A stretch of 63,457 nt of DNA from assembly GCA_003167255.1 (NCBI GenBank), contig PMTR01000080.1, positions 51,132-114,588 on the forward strand, written 5' to 3'. How positions within the stretch are numbered: position 1 is the stretch's first letter; every line of letters starts with the position of its first letter. Shown here one piece after another: positions 5,425 through 41,593 of this stretch. Made by a program: the position numbers and the translations under genes. The DNA comes from Bryobacterales bacterium. GTDB lineage: Bacteria > Acidobacteriota > Terriglobia > Bryobacterales > Bryobacteraceae. Below the pieces are notes generated by a model. It did not search any database. It was given only the letters and a program-made list of their open reading frames with translations, and was not told the origin of the DNA.

Positions 5425-6885
5425 TTACTTCGAAATCTGTTGCAAGCCTTTTTGCGCCTCGGTGCGCGCCAGGTCGGTGGCGCCTTCCACTTTCAAAGCA
5501 TCCTGGAAGCAGATAGCCGCTTTTTCGCGCTCGCCTACTTCCAATTTCAGTTTTCCCAGGTAAACCAAAGCCCAGGCGTGGATGGACGCCTCGGGTTCCA
5601 GTTCCAGCGTCTGTTCCAGGAGTGTTTCGGCGTCGTCGGGATTGTCCTGCGCCAGCGCGATGCGCGCCAGTCCGTAATATCCGGCGGCCTGCTCCGGTTT
5701 TCTGACGGCCTGTTGCAGGGCAAGCTGGAAGAGCTTCTCGGCTTTTTCCAGTTCCTTGTCTTTGAGCAATTGCTCCGCGCTCTTGAGTGTTTCGAATACC
5801 GGCGGCGTGGCGGGTGGAGGCGGCGTGGCCGGCGTGGCGGGCGGGGCCGCTTCGGGCTTGTTGAATTGCACCGAGGTCAGGCGCGTGTCCTCTTTATAGA
5901 GGTCGATGGCCTGCACCATACTGGTGTAGTAGAGCGCCATGGTCAGCTCCTGCTTTTCGTAAGCTGGCAGGGCCTCGAAGAAGTAGGGAGCCAGGATATA
6001 GCCTTCACGCAACGCGTCCTGGACGGCCTGCGGCTTGTGGTCCATGCGGGCTTGGACGGCGCGCACCAGCGATCCCGTGGTGAGCAGCAGGAAATCCTGT
6101 TTGTACGCGTCGCCAAGCATGCGGGCGCGCTGCGCGTGTTCCGCCAGGGGCTTCTTGCGGTTCAAGATCTCCTCATTACGCGTTGCCAGCGGATCGAGCA
6201 GGTAGTACAGGTAGGCCTGGCGGACTTCGGCGAGGCGCGGCTCGGCCGATGGGGTCACCACGATGGTGTATTCGTTGCCATAGCTGCGCGAATGAACCTG
6301 ATTGGGCGCGGCCAGCGGCTCCACGAAGATCTGAAAGTGGCGGCCGCGGAAACCGGAAGTCGGCTGGCGCAGGTAGGCGTTGATTTGTAAAACGGCTTCG
6401 CTCGCGGGCGCGTGATAGGGGGCGATCATCTGATCGATGGCCGGCTGCGCGCCGGCCCACAGTCCTTCGATGCCGGCTTCCTTGTAAAAATTCGCCAGCA
6501 GCGGTGAGAGCGCGAGCAGCGGAGTGACATCGGGCGGGATGTCCACTTCGCGTATTTTGACGGCGAAATCCGGCGGCCCGCCGGCGGTAAGCGCGAAGGA
6601 GATGTATTGGCTGAGTTCGGCCGTATCGTTTGTCCGATGGTGCTGCTCAAAAAAGACTTTCAGGGCGGCCAGAGAGGGAATATTGCGTTTGGCGAGCTCC
6701 GCGCGAATGGCGGCGCGAAGCGGGTTGTTATTGGGGGAAGCCAGACCAGCGTCGTACCCGGCGGCGTTGATGGCGGCCATCACCGTGAAAAGCGTCTGGC
6801 TGGCGTCGAGTTGTCCCTGTTCGGCGGGGGTGGCACGAGCCGGCAGGACGATCGCCAGAATGGCTGGAAGCACTAACCGATGCAA
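5425..6885 (-). CDS. Secreted protein with C-terminal TPR domain
   Basis: A 486-aa exported protein. An N-terminal signal (LPAILAIVLPARA) is followed by an uncharacterised domain of about 320 residues with the conserved-looking block YGNEYTIVVTPS and VRQAYLYYLLDPL. A Pro/Ala linker (PPATPATPPPPATPP) near residue 355 leads to TPRs from about 370 (AEKLFQLALQQA, YYGLARIALAQDNPDDAETLL, WALVYLGKLKLEVGERE). No HExxH or other catalytic motif is seen. The start is a TTG at 6885 with GAAGGCGG upstream; GTG at 6873 is an alternative. It heads an operon with the next TPR gene and rnc. Confidence 0.75.
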   Translation of the reverse strand: MHRLVLPAILAIVLPARATPAEQGQLDASQTLFTVMAAINAAGYDAGLASPNNNPLRAAIRAELAKRNIPSLAALKVFFEQHHRTNDTAELSQYISFALTAGGPPDFAVKIREVDIPPDVTPLLALSPLLANFYKEAGIEGLWAGAQPAIDQMIAPYHAPASEAVLQINAYLRQPTSGFRGRHFQIFVEPLAAPNQVHSRSYGNEYTIVVTPSAEPRLAEVRQAYLYYLLDPLATRNEEILNRKKPLAEHAQRARMLGDAYKQDFLLLTTGSLVRAVQARMDHKPQAVQDALREGYILAPYFFEALPAYEKQELTMALYYTSMVQAIDLYKEDTRLTSVQFNKPEAAPPATPATPPPPATPPVFETLKSAEQLLKDKELEKAEKLFQLALQQAVRKPEQAAGYYGLARIALAQDNPDDAETLLEQTLELEPEASIHAWALVYLGKLKLEVGEREKAAICFQDALKVEGATDLARTEAQKGLQQISK

Positions 6886-6967: not shown

Positions 6968-7228
6968 ATGAATTGGAACGATGCTGCCGAAGATTTACTC
7001 AACCAGGTGCTGGCGCAAACTCCCCGGCCGGTGCGCGAGTCAACCGAAGCGCAACTGCGCGGGACGGCCGAGGCCCTGGCGGAAGAAGATGGAAAGAACC
7101 GCGTCGGCGTGGAGACGGTGATCGCGGCCTGGGTCCGCAACACGCCGGAGACGGTGCGGCCAGATCTGCCGCGCCAAATGGAGCAGTTTGGCCTCGATCC
7201 GGACGAGTACCGGCACCTGCTCGAGTAG
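6968..7228 (+). CDS. Small PCP_red-like domain protein
   Basis: This 86-aa protein resembles the PCP_red domain (the C-terminal small domain of light-independent protochlorophyllide reductase subunit B, also found alone in non-phototrophs). The match rests on the start MNWNDAAEDLLNQV, the pattern PRPVRESTEAQLRGTAEALA, and a second helical stretch VGVETVIAAWVRN. No chlorophyll-biosynthesis gene is nearby, so a stand-alone role is unknown. It is divergent from the secreted TPR operon. A weak GGTGAG ribosome binding site precedes the ATG. Family assignment is from memory of the domain pattern and is moderate. Confidence 0.6.
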   Translation: MNWNDAAEDLLNQVLAQTPRPVRESTEAQLRGTAEALAEEDGKNRVGVETVIAAWVRNTPETVRPDLPRQMEQFGLDPDEYRHLLE

Positions 7229-23552: not shown

Positions 23553-23776
23553 GTGGGACAGACGATCGGTTTGTGTCGTCTGTTGCAGAGGGCCTGCGGC
23601 CCGCAAAAGTTCATGAAAAAGTGTGAGGAAGCTCGATGCTTGCGGACCCGCTTTCCAGCGGGTCGCGCCGCCTGAAAGGCGGCGGCAGCCAGGATTGGCT
23701 GCCCCACTTTTTCGACCCTGTCAAGCGGTCGTGGCTTGAGGCATGACAGACCACGAAATGCGATGGTCTGTCCCAC
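23553..23776. repeat. Nested palindromic repeats inside the hem operon
   Basis: The outer element has ends GTGGGACAGACGATCG (from 23553) and GATGGTCTGTCCCAC (to 23776) and matches the 90-bp copies at 37766-37855 and 40681-40765. Here it is split by about 125 bp that contain a second repeat: GACCCGC/GCGGGTC hairpin, GCCGCC..GGCGGC hairpin and GCAGCCA-GGAT-TGGCTGC, ending CCCCAC. The inner unit matches the element at 3780-3822. A repeat has apparently inserted into a repeat. Confidence 0.75.
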
Positions 23777-37442: not shown

Positions 37443-37706
37443 TCAGGGGTTCAGCCGGTAGTCCCGTCCCAGCGGGCCGGCGCCGGCCAGATAGCGGGGC
37501 AATTCCTCGGCGAGAAAGCGGTCCAGGCGCACGCGATAGCAGTGGCCTTCGCAATGCGAGAGATGCGCCAGCACCTCGGCGACGGAAAAGCGATCGGGCG
37601 CCGGTTTCCACCGGGCGTCATCTTCGGAAAGCTCGCTCATCAGGTCGCGCAGCATCGCCGGCGTCGATTCGAGCAGATCGAGGCAGTCCAGGGAGTCTGT
37701 AGGCAT
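37443..37706 (-). pseudogene. Truncated DinB-family gene
   Basis: The 87-aa frame (PTDSLDCLDLLESTPAMLRD, WKPAPDRFSVAEVLAHLSHCE, YRVRLDRFLAEELPRYLAG) matches the N-terminal half of DinB/DUF664-type four-helix proteins, which are normally about 150-170 aa. It has the first metal-ligand His (LAHLSHCE) but lacks the C-terminal helices and their histidines. A stop follows at once after GRDYRLNP. It borders the repeat at 37766-37855. It is called a pseudogene because of its length; a short functional form is possible. Confidence 0.5.
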
Positions 37707-37765
37707 CACCAAACAATCATACAAGGTCGGCGCAGTGGGGCCGCAACCAAACTGCCTGAATGAGA

Positions 37766-37855
37766 GTGGGACAGACGATCGATTCTTGTCGTCTGTCGGG
37801 CTACCGCGCTTTCCGGGGCATAAGACAGGCCACAAAAGACGATGGCCTGTCCCAC
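37766..37855. repeat. 90-bp palindromic repeat, left copy of the island boundary
   Basis: Intact copy: GTGGGACAGACGATCG at the left and GATGGCCTGTCCCAC at the right, with internal TTGTCGTCTGTCGGG and CACAAAAGACGATGG. It matches 40681-40765 and the split copy at 23553-23776. Similarity to the second copy continues past its right end through 37856-37935. Confidence 0.8.
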
Positions 37856-37893
37856 GAAGGGCCGATTGAGCGGGTGTAATCCAATGCAAGAGG

Positions 37894-37935
37894 TCATCCT
37901 ACGATGCTTTCGCCGCCGTCCACCTGTAGCGTGGC
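37894..37935 (-). pseudogene. Duplicated 3' end of the fabI-like gene
   Basis: The frame ATLQVDGGESIVG followed by TGA corresponds to the last residues (TLRVDGGESVVG) of the enoyl-reductase gene at 40805-41593, and the downstream DNA (GTGTAATCCAATGCA) matches too. The copy is truncated at its 5' side. It marks one end of the island described in the findings. Confidence 0.7.
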
Positions 37936-38206
37936 CAATCGGGTCCACAGCCTCACCCAGCTCTACGACCGGCGCTCCGGCGAGATGCTCCACCAGCTCC
38001 TCCGCGGCGCCCCAGTCGAGCACGGCGCCCACATGGCCGAACTGGAGGAACTCTATAAAGGTTCCGTCCGCACCACCAGCCTTGTGATCCGTTAGCCGCG
38101 CCGTATTATGGGACAACAAAACGGGACAGCGCAAGCGCTGTCTTTACAGGGGTTCGACTGTCGTCCCGAAACATACCCATTTTGAGACGTTTCCGCGCGG
38201 GGTAGA
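37936..38206. other. Unassigned DNA with frames open on both strands
   Basis: Short frames are open on both strands: plus, GEMLHQLLRGAPVEHGAHMA through ELYKGSVRTTSLVIR; minus, FIEFLQFGHVGAVLDWGAAEE. Either could be a gene remnant. Neither has a convincing start or a family I recognise. TAGAAT (38203-38208) with TTGAGA 15 bp upstream is a candidate promoter for the next gene. Confidence 0.35.
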
Positions 38207-38620
38207 ATGATAAGTTGGGTGTCCACCTTCAAGGATGTTGGCATTCCGCTTATTTCGGGGGCGATCAGCTCGGCTCTGACGTTCTTTTGGCCGAAGGTGT
38301 GGCGCTTATACGAAGCGCGTTACGTCGATCCTAAAACCGCACTCCAGGAATCGCTGGCAGAACAAGCCAGATGGTACCAAGACCGCGCATCAAAGTTGGC
38401 GGTATTCAGTTTTGAACTCGGCCAAGATCCTGACGATTTCAAGCTCCAAATATTGATTTCGAAGCTCGACCGGCAGGATAGAGAATGGGCCATGAAAGAA
38501 AAGGACATTGCAACCCTGAGACGCTGCGCCGATGCCAAGGCCGAGGAGTGCCGCATGAACTCAGAGGAAGCCGCACGGTGGGCTGAACACGTCGGGGATC
38601 GTACTTTCTTTCCTCTTTAG
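38207..38620 (+). CDS. Hypothetical membrane-anchored protein
   Basis: A 137-aa protein of unknown function. The N-terminal 30 residues (WVSTFKDVGIPLISGAISSA, LTFFWPKVW) are amphipathic to hydrophobic and could anchor in the membrane. The rest is charged and helical (WAMKEKDIATLRRCADAKAEE). The ATG at 38207 overlaps a TAGAAT -10-like box; the in-frame GTG at 38219 would suit that promoter better. GC is visibly lower than in flanking housekeeping genes, consistent with transfer. Confidence 0.6.
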   Translation: MISWVSTFKDVGIPLISGAISSALTFFWPKVWRLYEARYVDPKTALQESLAEQARWYQDRASKLAVFSFELGQDPDDFKLQILISKLDRQDREWAMKEKDIATLRRCADAKAEECRMNSEEAARWAEHVGDRTFFPL

Positions 38621-38732
38621 AGTGTGGCCCCAGAAGCTCCGAGTACACTGAACCTTCACGCTTTCTCCATTGTGAAATCTGTTATGATCGTGCCACGTTT
38701 CTAATACACGGGAAACGCGAAGGAGCGGCCAA

Positions 38733-39326
38733 ATGGCTCTATTTCGGAGTGTCCCTGCACTTGTTTTTCTGATCACCAGTTTGGCGGCTGTGGCTAAAGC
38801 GCAAACTGAAAAGACTTTTCCAACTGACGCCGAAATCAACCTCGTGCTCACTCAGGCCGAACGGGCGATACAACAATACAAGCCACTGATAGACCAAGAA
38901 GAGGTTCAGATGGGCAAGAGCGTAGCAACCGCCGTAGCGAACGACCGCGAAGTTTTGATCTCACTAGAGACAGCCGTGAAAGCGTTCATGCGCAAGCCCC
39001 AAGGGTTCAATGGACCGCTGGGTTTCGCTTTCTTCGAGTGGCTGGATGACGCAGACCGAAACGCTGTGCTATGCGGAAGTGGCGCATCAGCACAAGCCAC
39101 GTTGCAGATGACAGCCGGAAATAAAGATAAGGCGGAAACGCTGCTTCATCTGGCCCACAGTTGTACTGACGTGTCCACGTTGCTTTACACCGTAAGTGAG
39201 AACGCAGGTTCCTTGTACCAGAGATACGCCGAAGCCGAGCAGCAATTGGCGGTTCAGGCTACCGAAGCGGCGGAAACATGTGCGGCTATTCTAAAGAAGA
39301 ACACTGTCGCGCCGCCTAAAAAGTAG
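38733..39326 (+). CDS. Hypothetical secreted protein
   Basis: A 197-aa protein with signal peptide (VPALVFLITSLAAVAKA) and a mostly helical mature part (AEINLVLTQAERAIQQYKPL, GNKDKAETLLHLAHSC, AEQQLAVQATEAAETCAAIL) with three cysteines. No known domain is recognised. GAAGGAG lies 7 nt before the ATG. It overlaps the convergent DUF4238-like gene by 11 nt. Codon use is less GC-rich than its neighbours outside the island. Confidence 0.7.
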   Translation: MALFRSVPALVFLITSLAAVAKAQTEKTFPTDAEINLVLTQAERAIQQYKPLIDQEEVQMGKSVATAVANDREVLISLETAVKAFMRKPQGFNGPLGFAFFEWLDDADRNAVLCGSGASAQATLQMTAGNKDKAETLLHLAHSCTDVSTLLYTVSENAGSLYQRYAEAEQQLAVQATEAAETCAAILKKNTVAPPKK

Positions 39327-40188
39327 AACGTGCCTCTAGACGCTGCGGTGAGTGCGCAAACCGACCCCCGGCCTCATTGAGGTATAGCGGGTAAAGGTCT
39401 GATAGCGCCGTTGGTTGGAAGGCGTCAGTCTCGTCAATTTTGTGGCGACGTCCGATTAGGCAGGCCTGCCAGCAAATAGGAAAAATGAAGAGAGTGTCTT
39501 GATCCCTCATCGCTTCTTCGCGTGAAGAATGGCCAAAACCGACTAACGCAACCGCATTGTCACCTGTGATCACGGGCTTAGTAACATCCTCGGTAAAACG
39601 CAGCCCCCAATTCCACCCAGCAAACTCCCCGGCCCCCTTCCCGATCTCCATTCGCATCTTCGTGATGCTCAGGTTTTTAAAAAACACGGCGCGGTTAGCA
39701 TTGCTCTGCATCTCGGCGGCTGAAAATTTGATTTGACATTCAGTCTGCCCCGGCTTATTCGGGTCCGACCTCGTTTGTAGCACTTCTTCGACCTTCAGAA
39801 AGGTTGCGTGGTCTGCTTCTTTCAGTACCTCTTGGCGGAATAGATCTGATCTCGCACGAAGCATCTGCGAATACCGGACAAGAAGCTCGCGGTGTTTTGT
39901 CCAGCCGGAAAAGTTGCTGGCAACCAGTTCTTGTCTTAGCGGAGGAAAGTTGGTTTCGAATTCCTTAAACGCCTGATCGGCTGTTGCGTCCGGCTCGCTG
40001 CCTTCCGAGTAATCATAGTAGGCGCGTTCGGCGGCCACGCTGCGCGGGTTGCTCTCAAACCATTTCCTCCGCTCGATGTCAAACACCCACAGCGGCCCCT
40101 CTCTTGAAGGGCTGGTGAAGCCCTCCAAATACCCCTGAGGAAGGATATGGTCTAGCCTGTTACGATCTGGAGCCTTCTGCGACGCCAC
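39316..40188 (-). CDS. DUF4238-family protein
   Basis: A 290-aa cytoplasmic protein. The N-terminal RLDHILPQGYLEGFTSP, LWVFDIERRKWFESNPRSVAAERAYYDY and the later PVITGDNAVALVGFG match the DUF4238 pattern (HYxPxxYLxxF...). The biochemical function of the family is unknown to me; members are patchily distributed, often next to mobile or accessory genes. It lies in a low-GC island bounded by duplicated sequence and overlaps the secreted-protein gene tail-to-tail. Confidence 0.75.
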   Translation of the reverse strand: MASQKAPDRNRLDHILPQGYLEGFTSPSREGPLWVFDIERRKWFESNPRSVAAERAYYDYSEGSEPDATADQAFKEFETNFPPLRQELVASNFSGWTKHRELLVRYSQMLRARSDLFRQEVLKEADHATFLKVEEVLQTRSDPNKPGQTECQIKFSAAEMQSNANRAVFFKNLSITKMRMEIGKGAGEFAGWNWGLRFTEDVTKPVITGDNAVALVGFGHSSREEAMRDQDTLFIFPICWQACLIGRRHKIDETDAFQPTALSDLYPLYLNEAGGRFAHSPQRLEARSTF

Positions 40189-40222
40189 AACATCTATTTT
40201 CTCACGCGTCCAGGCACAAGCG

Positions 40223-40570
40223 TTAATCTGGAAAGTCCCGATAGAGTTTTAAACACGTTGGGATTGCGCTTACAGAATTGAAGGCGCTCGGATCGAATGT
40301 TACGCACAGCTGTCCTGTCTTCGTGTCAAGCGCATACGTTCCCTGCCACGCATCGCCCTTTAGGCTTTCGGGCTGATGCGATAGGGGAGCGAACCGCTGG
40401 TAATGGGCCGTAGGTTTTCCGCACCCGCACAAGATTACAGCGGCGCAGGTGAGGGTTAAACACTTCGTTACGAATGCTGGTCCCAGTTCGAGCCACCTTT
40501 CGACTTTATTTGCTGTGCGCGAGCTTTTCGAGCACGTCTTCTTCTGCGCGTATGAACCGTAACGTGGCAT
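40223..40570 (-). CDS. Putative small lipoprotein
   Basis: A 115-aa frame with a lipoprotein-like segment TLTCAAVILCGCGKP (lipobox LCGC near residue 48) preceded by basic residues, and a mature part GDAWQGTYALDTKTGQLCVTFDPS. The ATG at 40570 gives an unusually long 30-residue leader before the hydrophobic core, so the real start may be internal and non-ATG. A second frame ending at 40506 (RFIRAEEDVLEKLAHSK) overlaps the 5' end, and I cannot decide whether it is used. It belongs to the island. Confidence 0.5.
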   Translation of the reverse strand: MPRYGSYAQKKTCSKSSRTANKVERWLELGPAFVTKCLTLTCAAVILCGCGKPTAHYQRFAPLSHQPESLKGDAWQGTYALDTKTGQLCVTFDPSAFNSVSAIPTCLKLYRDFPD

Positions 40571-40680
40571 GCATAATCAGTTCGCTGATGTCATTACATT
40601 CATTTTTTATGTCATCAGCGGAACTATAAAGGCTAGGCTGCTGGCCGCCGTTTCCCCGGGTTGAATCCGCAAGAGCAACA

Positions 40681-40765
40681 ACAGACGATCGGTTTTTGTC
40701 CCCTGTCGGGCTGCCGCGCTTTCCCAGGCATGAGACAGGCCACAAAAGGCGATGGCCTGTCCCAC
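40681..40765. repeat. Palindromic repeat, right copy of the island boundary
   Basis: Matches 37766-37855 from ACAGACGATCGG to GATGGCCTGTCCCAC, lacking the first GTGGG. The following DNA to about 40848, including the fabI 3' end, corresponds to 37856-37935. Confidence 0.8.
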
Positions 40766-40804
40766 GAAGGGCCGATTGCGCAGGTGTAATCCAATGCACT
40801 TAGG

Positions 40805-41593
40805 TTATCCTACGACGCTTTCGCCGCCGTCCACCCGCAGGGTGTTGCCGGTGAGCCAGTAGGTGGCGGGATGGCACAGCGCGGCGATAGCGCGGGCCAC
40901 GTCTTCCGGCTGAGTGAGGCGGTGGTGCGGATTGCGCAGGCGGGCGATCTCCATGATCTTCTCGTAGCCCGGAATCTGGCGCAGCGCATTGGAATCGGTC
41001 ACGCCCGCGAGGATGGCGTTGGCGGTGATGCCGGCGGGGGCGAGCTCCACCGCCAGTTGGCGGATGTGCGATTCCAGAATGGCCTTGGCCGCGCTCACCG
41101 GACCGTACTGCGGAATCACGCGCGTCGAGCCCACGCTGGTCATGGCGAAGATGCGCGCGCCGCGGTCGAACAGGCCGGCCGTGAGCGAGTCCTGCACCCA
41201 GTAAACCAGCGAGTGGCCCATCACGTCGGCGGTGAGTTCGAGCTGGTGGCGGGAGGCTACTTCCTCGGCGCCCGCCAGGTGTTTGAGCGCCCCGAAGGCC
41301 AGCGAGTGCAGCAGCACGCGCAGCGTACCGCCGGGCGCGTCGGCCAGGCGTTTCGCGATCTTCTCCATGACCTCCCGGCGTTTATCGTCGAGCGCCGCAT
41401 TGATATTGAAGAACTCGGATTCGCGGCCGAATTCGTGGATCTTCTGCTGGAGTTCGACGATGCGAAAGAGCTTGTCCCGGCGGTCCAGGTGGACGCCGAA
41501 AATGTTCATACCGGCGCGGGCCAGTTCGAGCGCCGTAGCCTCGCCGAATCCGCTGCTGGCGCCCAGAATGAGGGCCCAAGGTTGTTTGATCAT
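40805..41593 (-). CDS. FabI/FabL-like enoyl-ACP reductase (SDR)
   Basis: A 262-aa short-chain reductase. ALILGASSGFGEATALELARAG is the nucleotide-binding start. VLLHSLAFGALKHLAG near residue 95 resembles the enoyl reductase SLAF motif. The catalytic YGPVSAAK near 160 has the Tyr-x6-Lys spacing of FabI/FabL rather than the Tyr-x3-Lys of ordinary SDRs. TLRVDGGESVVG ends the protein. It should catalyse the last reduction of fatty acid elongation. The ATG at 41593 overlaps tsaE by ATGA. An upstream in-frame extension overlaps tsaE and is rejected. Its last codons are duplicated at 37894. Confidence 0.82.
   Translation of the reverse strand: MIKQPWALILGASSGFGEATALELARAGMNIFGVHLDRRDKLFRIVELQQKIHEFGRESEFFNINAALDDKRREVMEKIAKRLADAPGGTLRVLLHSLAFGALKHLAGAEEVASRHQLELTADVMGHSLVYWVQDSLTAGLFDRGARIFAMTSVGSTRVIPQYGPVSAAKAILESHIRQLAVELAPAGITANAILAGVTDSNALRQIPGYEKIMEIARLRNPHHRLTQPEDVARAIAALCHPATYWLTGNTLRVDGGESVVG

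What the first reader, a model, noticed from the sequence alone, without database searches (positions are those of the whole stretch)
37766..40848. Low-GC island of unknown genes between two copies of the fabI 3' end and a palindromic repeat
Positions 37766-37935 and 40681-40848 match each other: a 90-bp palindrome, then GTGTAATCCAATGCA, then the last codons of the fabI-like gene. Between them are a membrane-anchored hypothetical, a secreted hypothetical, a DUF4238-type protein and a putative lipoprotein, all less GC-rich than the flanks. The arrangement resembles integration next to the fabI 3' end with duplication of the end, or recombination between repeats that captured a cargo. No integrase or transposase is in the interval. 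The DUF4238 cluster is the best candidate here for an undescribed accessory or defence-type system; that function is speculative.
Basis: partly seen in the sequence, partly recalled or inferred. Interest (0 to 1): 0.75.

Follow-up and report, generated by a model that had tools for sequence, protein, structure and literature searches.

The report
DUF4238 gene insertion behind fabI
A small block of foreign genes, one of them from a family with a tested anti-phage member, was inserted behind a fatty-acid synthesis gene of a probable acidobacterium and doubled that gene's last bases; it is a good example of a known kind of event, not a new defence system.

Summary
Window 37771-37933 and 40681-40844 are a direct repeat (145 of 164 positions). 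Two relatives (G001 same genus, G002 same family) show the empty site: fabI stop, 4 nt, DinB start, no repeat, no cargo; the window has 3,098 bp there. The palindrome is a dispersed REP element (45 matches in this genome); a tandem pair of REP-flanked RAYT genes lies elsewhere. Most of the REP was doubled together with 43 bp of fabI. The low-GC cargo carries an intact DUF4238 gene, a lipoprotein gene and two orphan genes; no conserved four-gene system was found. DUF4238 is a described single-protein anti-phage family (PMC9122126, passages). The insertion is old: its two flanks differ about as much as fabI fourfold sites do between G000 and G001. How the flank was doubled is unresolved; I favour a decayed integrative mini-island over illegitimate capture. 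One oddity: the lipoprotein gene was found in only 2 of 237 family genomes, both times between two copies of a neighbour gene's 3' end.

The parts
37443..37706 (-). DinB-superfamily gene, the old downstream neighbour of fabI; internally deleted (87 aa against 171 aa in G001)
37732..37890 (+). extended REP element (palindrome 37766-37855 plus tail with GTGTAAT), copy beside DinB
37771..37933 (+). left copy of the direct repeat; its last 43 bp are a displaced fabI 3' end (TGA stop)
37934..38095 (+). 53-codon open frame running in from the left junction (GC3 45 of 54, stop included), perhaps the tail of a gene whose 5' part is missing; one minus-strand frame is open too; no relative found
38207..38620 (+). 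gene A, 137 aa, putative membrane-anchored protein, orphan
38733..39326 (+). gene B, 197 aa, putative secreted protein, orphan
39316..40188 (-). gene C, DUF4238 (PF14022), 290 aa, intact
40223..40570 (-). gene D, putative lipoprotein, 115 aa; relative in G050 (76% identity); N-terminus not conserved
40506..40680 (-). open frame running in from the right junction without a start codon in the cargo before an internal ATG; perhaps another cut gene tail
40681..40844 (+). right copy of the direct repeat, REP lacking its first 5 bases, joined to the working fabI 3' end (TAA stop)
40805..41593 (-). fabI-like enoyl-ACP reductase gene, intact, 262 aa

Best explanation
In the window's lineage a REP element came to lie between fabI and DinB, and about 2.75 kb of foreign, lower-GC DNA entered at the fabI 3' end. 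The entry left a 163-bp duplication (most of the REP plus 43 bp of fabI), so fabI kept a working end and a displaced copy stayed beside DinB. I think it most likely that the cargo is the remnant of an integrative mini-island that used the gene end as its attachment site and has since lost its recombinase. It is old and probably no longer mobile. DinB, cut off from its gene pair, has lost 84 codons. The part most likely still at work is the DUF4238 gene, which by family should act alone as an anti-phage protein. Shown: the insertion relative to two relatives, the duplication, the open DUF4238 frame with its family motifs. Inferred: the order of REP and cargo, the attachment-site mechanism, the loss of a recombinase, the link between insertion and DinB decay, the anti-phage role.
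For: Empty site: G001 and G002 have 4 nt between fabI stop and DinB start and one fabI end. The two copies share six positions against the REP family majority (two of them seen in none of 28 other copies) and share their tail and fabI end, which no third place among the scored matches has, so they are copies of one another. They differ at 19 of 164 positions, fabI fourfold sites at 23 of 149 between G000 and G001 (Fisher p 0.33): an old event. Cargo GC 53.8%. Cargo genes rare in relatives: A and B 1 of 101 genomes (own only), C 3 of 101, D 2 of 237. DUF4238 is patchy in the phylum (38 of 396 genomes). Of 150 neighbouring ORFs of other DUF4238 genes, 5 are phage integrases, the commonest Pfam family; type I and II methyltransferases, a restriction enzyme, DarG and three mad2 also occur (no control set). 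One DUF4238 copy (interrupted, G173) lies between 48-bp identical copies of a tRNA-Arg end with an integrase fragment. Family positions H14, E78, R113, D210, P237 are all present.
Against: No integrase in the cargo. No third copy of the doubled fabI end was seen in the genome (40 of 197 candidates scored), so no sister element with the same site. Open frames run in from both junctions without a start, as if cut; a precise element would not need that. In two other DUF4238 loci, G456 (closest in sequence) and G386 (same host family), the gene sits among what look like ordinary chromosomal genes with no bracketing repeat, and 34 of 38 other loci have no bracketing repeat. The PADLOC model matches residues 11-116 only.
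Confidence: 0.5

Rival explanations
1. Illegitimate capture. A broken or stalled fork at the REP hairpin took up a random foreign fragment by end joining or template switching; staggered ends, or a return to a point 163 bp back, doubled the flank.
For: No recombinase in the cargo. Frames open to both junctions look like gene tails without their 5' parts; the left one has core-like codon use (GC3 45 of 54) unlike the other cargo genes. The right copy starts inside a REP arm, a hairpin that might stall forks.
Against: The duplication keeps fabI intact, as attachment-site integration does. The same lipoprotein gene sits behind a gene with a doubled end in G050 as well. The supposed tails have no known relatives, so they may not be real gene parts; one minus-strand frame of the left one is open too.
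Confidence: 0.33
2. Homologous recombination between REP copies brought the cargo in from another locus.
For: The REP is abundant (45 matches) and REP-flanked RAYT genes are present.
Against: The duplication includes 43 bp of fabI and a version of the tail that no other scored or aligned REP copy carries, so the flank was doubled at this locus.
Confidence: 0.08
3. Assembly artefact of the draft genome.
For: The genome is a 200-contig draft and no reads were available to me.
Against: The copies differ at 19 of 164 positions and their longest identical run is about 29 bases; contamination is estimated at 0.37%; the contig has 185,593 bases; the fabI side is collinear with G001 and DinB lies on the other side.
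Confidence: 0.04

Closest known systems
DUF4238 anti-phage protein from a P2-like phage hotspot (PMC9122126, passages read)
   Same: Single DUF4238 protein with the family motifs, carried by accessory DNA
   Different: No phage genes in the cargo; only the N-terminal part matches PADLOC's DUF4238-Pers model; not compared directly with the tested protein; activity untested
Genomic islands with attachment sites in gene 3' ends (for example e14 in icd; recalled)
   Same: Gene end doubled, host gene kept working, empty site in relatives, foreign composition
   Different: No integrase found; only 2.75 kb; the copies have drifted by 11.6%
REP/RAYT elements, reported for Acidobacteria in PMC6006769 (passages read)
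   Same: Dispersed extragenic palindrome; REP-flanked Y1 transposase genes in the same genome
   Different: The cargo is not a REP product; most of the REP was merely doubled with the fabI end; membership in that paper's classes was not tested

Membership tests
DUF4238 (PF14022) | Score above the curated cut-off over most of the domain | tested here: met
   57.8 bits against 27, residues 14-255, profile 3-246 of 281
DUF4238 (PF14022) | Family-conserved positions present | tested here: met
   H14, E78, R113, D210, P237 in an alignment of 14 proteins
DUF4238 anti-phage system | Match to the PADLOC model DUF4238-Pers over its length | tested here: inconclusive
   E 2.6e-8 but residues 11-116 only, model 5-110 of 309
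DUF4238 anti-phage system | Protects a host against phage | not testable with these tools
   needs an assay
Integrative genomic island | Direct repeats at both ends, one of them completing the target gene | tested here: met
Integrative genomic island | Empty site with a single copy in relatives | tested here: met
   G001 and G002
Integrative genomic island | Encodes an integrase or other recombinase | tested here: not met
   no such domain in the cargo ORFs scanned; so it is not filed as a complete island
Integrative genomic island | Excises or circularises | not testable with these tools
   needs PCR or reads
REP element with RAYT | Many dispersed copies in the genome | tested here: met
   45 matches in G000, some on both strands of one place; 40 of 197 candidates scored
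REP element with RAYT | A Y1 transposase gene flanked by the same REP | tested here: met
   tandem pair in L110; the other 14 of 15 loci had no REP hit
REP element with RAYT | Class-specific tetranucleotide foot (GTAG, CGTC, CnGA) | not tested
   known from passages of PMC3733652 and PMC6006769
Conserved four-gene defence system | The genes occur together in other genomes | tested here: not met
   no genome but the window's own was seen to match two of the four; A, B and D were not searched in the 396 genomes

The most novel reading that the evidence does not exclude
The lipoprotein gene D marks an undescribed small cassette that inserts behind protein-coding genes and doubles the gene's 3' end, moved by a recombinase supplied in trans. 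Both known carriers (fabI here, an FG-GAP/ASPIC-UnbV gene in G050) show it: D in the sense direction behind the gene, then a second copy of the gene's end. The working fabI end and both copies of the G050 gene end share the 9-mer GCGTCGTAG (the displaced fabI copy has one mismatch in it).
Probability: 0.1. Interest if true: 0.6.

Novelty: new member of a known kind. Interest (0 to 1): 0.3.

Why it matters
It gives a roughly dated insertion with a clear empty site that carries a member of a defence family whose molecular action is unknown (PMC9122126, passage). If the pattern around the lipoprotein gene recurs, it would point to a way in which tiny passenger genes spread without a recombinase of their own.

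Tried and rejected
Four-gene system: rejected for lack of co-occurrence. Cargo on plasmids or phages: no match for the whole region in plasmids; DUF4238 and the lipoprotein gave no match in plasmids or phages; genes B and A none in plasmids, not searched in phages. Genome contigs: the DUF4238 protein alone found nothing, a 3-row alignment found one locus. Viral contigs: no relative for DUF4238, B, the G456 protein or D; A was not searched there. One viral contig (L122), found with another DUF4238 protein, carries a remote family member. Structures of DUF4238 (3-row alignment) and gene B had mean pLDDT 35.0 and 48.6 and were not used; no fold search was run. PDB sequence search with DUF4238: none. 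Promoter and terminator scan at chance level. Empty site for the G050 insertion: only paralogs seen in the list, so not shown.

Direct repeats bracket 4 of 38 other DUF4238 genes against 15 of 574 control positions (p 0.025). The control positions overlap and can hit the same repeats, and by eye only one of the four (G173, tRNA-Arg) is a clear attachment site, so I do not lean on the number. The 9-mer shared between gene ends came up in 3.4% of 1,000 shuffles and was noticed after the fact. The age comparison gives p 0.33, so a duplication as old as the split cannot be told from a younger one.

Full report
What was checked. The repeat is real: 37771-37933 against 40681-40844, 145 of 164 positions, and at the thresholds used it is the only close direct repeat in the window. 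Each copy holds most of a palindrome, a tail with GTGTAATCCAATGCA and the last 43 bp or so of fabI. The cargo between them is the lowest-GC stretch of the window.

The empty site. In G001 (same genus) fabI ends in TGA, four bases follow, and the DinB gene starts. G002, another genus of the family, has the same layout with four bases. Of the 41 genomes, 13 had any match and these two were the ones with both genes side by side; G004, G025 and G027 matched at fabI only and G019 at DinB only. DinB is 171 aa in G001; the protein matches G002 over residues 1-171 and G019 over 6-171, but the window only over 1-72. The window's gene keeps the reading frame and a similar last stretch, with 87 aa in all, so it has lost about 84 codons inside. 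So 37707-40804 (3,098 bp) is a gain in the window's lineage, placed inside an old gene pair. Beyond DinB, G001 has what read by eye as cytochrome oxidase genes while the window has another ORF and the SRP RNA, so this side has been rearranged too.

What the palindrome is. It gave 45 matches in the genome, two of them here (40 of 197 candidates were scored, and a few places are counted on both strands). An alignment with 28 other copies shows conserved arms and, in several copies, a longer tail that ends in GTGTAATAC. The genome has 16 Y1 transposase hits. I fetched stretches round all 16, in 15 loci; only L110, a tandem pair of such genes, has REP arms, on both sides of each gene. A first look at five of the loci had found no hit. 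The repeat is thus a REP with a RAYT, a known kind. PMC6006769 (passages) reports class 3 Y1 proteins in Acidobacteria and about 600 associated structures in Solibacter usitatus. PMC3733652 (passages) describes REP families and transposases flanked by them or by inverted repeats. G153, of the same phylum as the window, has a contig of the same length and content as L105, titled uncultured Acidobacteria, so the phylum is a fair inference.

How the two copies relate. They share six positions against the REP family majority, two of them seen in none of 28 other copies, and they share the tail and the fabI end, so one was copied from the other at this locus. In the REP part, by the family majority, four changes are private to the left copy, four to the right, and one is unclear. 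In the fabI part the right copy equals G001 up to the stop codon (TAA against TGA), while the left has several further changes and keeps TGA. The left copy is the displaced one. Divergence of 19 of 164 is close to the 23 of 149 at fourfold sites of fabI between G000 and G001, so the event is old.

The genes. DUF4238 (C) is an open frame of 290 aa with the family's conserved positions. Its best relatives seen are 35% identical (G456, itself interrupted) and 26% identical (G153). In 396 genomes of the phylum 38 have a DUF4238 match. Among 150 of 170 neighbouring ORFs, five are integrases, and methyltransferases, a restriction enzyme, DarG and three mad2 appear, beside ordinary genes such as SRP54; no control set was run for these counts. 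An AbiJ N-terminal-domain protein lies beside DUF4238 in G386. In PMC9122126 (passages) a single DUF4238 protein gave strong resistance to T7, and its molecular function is called unknown. PMC10855318, PMC12629846 and PMC11291487 (passages) name DUF4238 among defence systems. So the family's defence role is already described. A and B matched nothing in 100 other genomes. D has one relative in 236 other family genomes.

The lipoprotein D. In G050, D (76% identical) lies behind an FG-GAP/ASPIC-UnbV gene, in the same direction, and a second 67-bp copy of that gene's end (91%) follows D. The end of the next tandem paralog is only 66% alike, so the second copy is unlikely to be a paralog remnant. 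DNA likeness between the two D insertions covers only the gene. With two cases, and no empty site shown for G050, this is an oddity to follow, not a finding.

Mechanism. I commit to a decayed integrative mini-island (0.5), because the gene end is kept working, the flank is doubled, the cargo is foreign, and one DUF4238 gene elsewhere lies between doubled tRNA ends with an integrase fragment. Illegitimate capture is close behind (0.33), because no recombinase is present and frames open to both junctions look like cut genes.

Literature. I searched for DUF4238, REP transposases with Acidobacteria, islands with fabI, REP and islands and end duplications; the listings showed no paper on this locus, and I opened none. 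The comparison with e14 in icd is recalled; one search gave only a listing.

Noticed in passing
L062:1379-1445 and 1840-1906 (G050): The only other relative found of the lipoprotein gene also lies between two copies of its neighbour gene's 3' end (67 bp, 91%).
   Followed up: partly
37443-37706: DinB gene with an in-frame internal loss of about 84 codons compared with G001.
   Followed up: yes
L110 (G000:C159:29000-34200): Tandem pair of RAYT genes, each flanked by arms of the same REP as at fabI.
   Followed up: partly
L155:3134-3181 and 7180-7227 (G173): Small element between 48-bp copies of a tRNA-Arg end with an integrase fragment and an interrupted DUF4238 gene.
   Followed up: partly
L122:2153-3178: DUF4238 gene in a viral contig next to genes that read by eye as portal and HNH genes.
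   Followed up: no
window 23553-23584 and 23745-23776: Further REP arms in opposite orientation in the same window.
   Followed up: no
L144:4016-4071 and 6060-6115 (G381): 56-bp direct repeat (98%) around a DUF4238 gene; nature unknown.
   Followed up: no
38125-38142: Second small palindrome (GACAGCGC/GCGCTGTC) inside the cargo; no second match of the surrounding stretch in this genome.
   Followed up: partly
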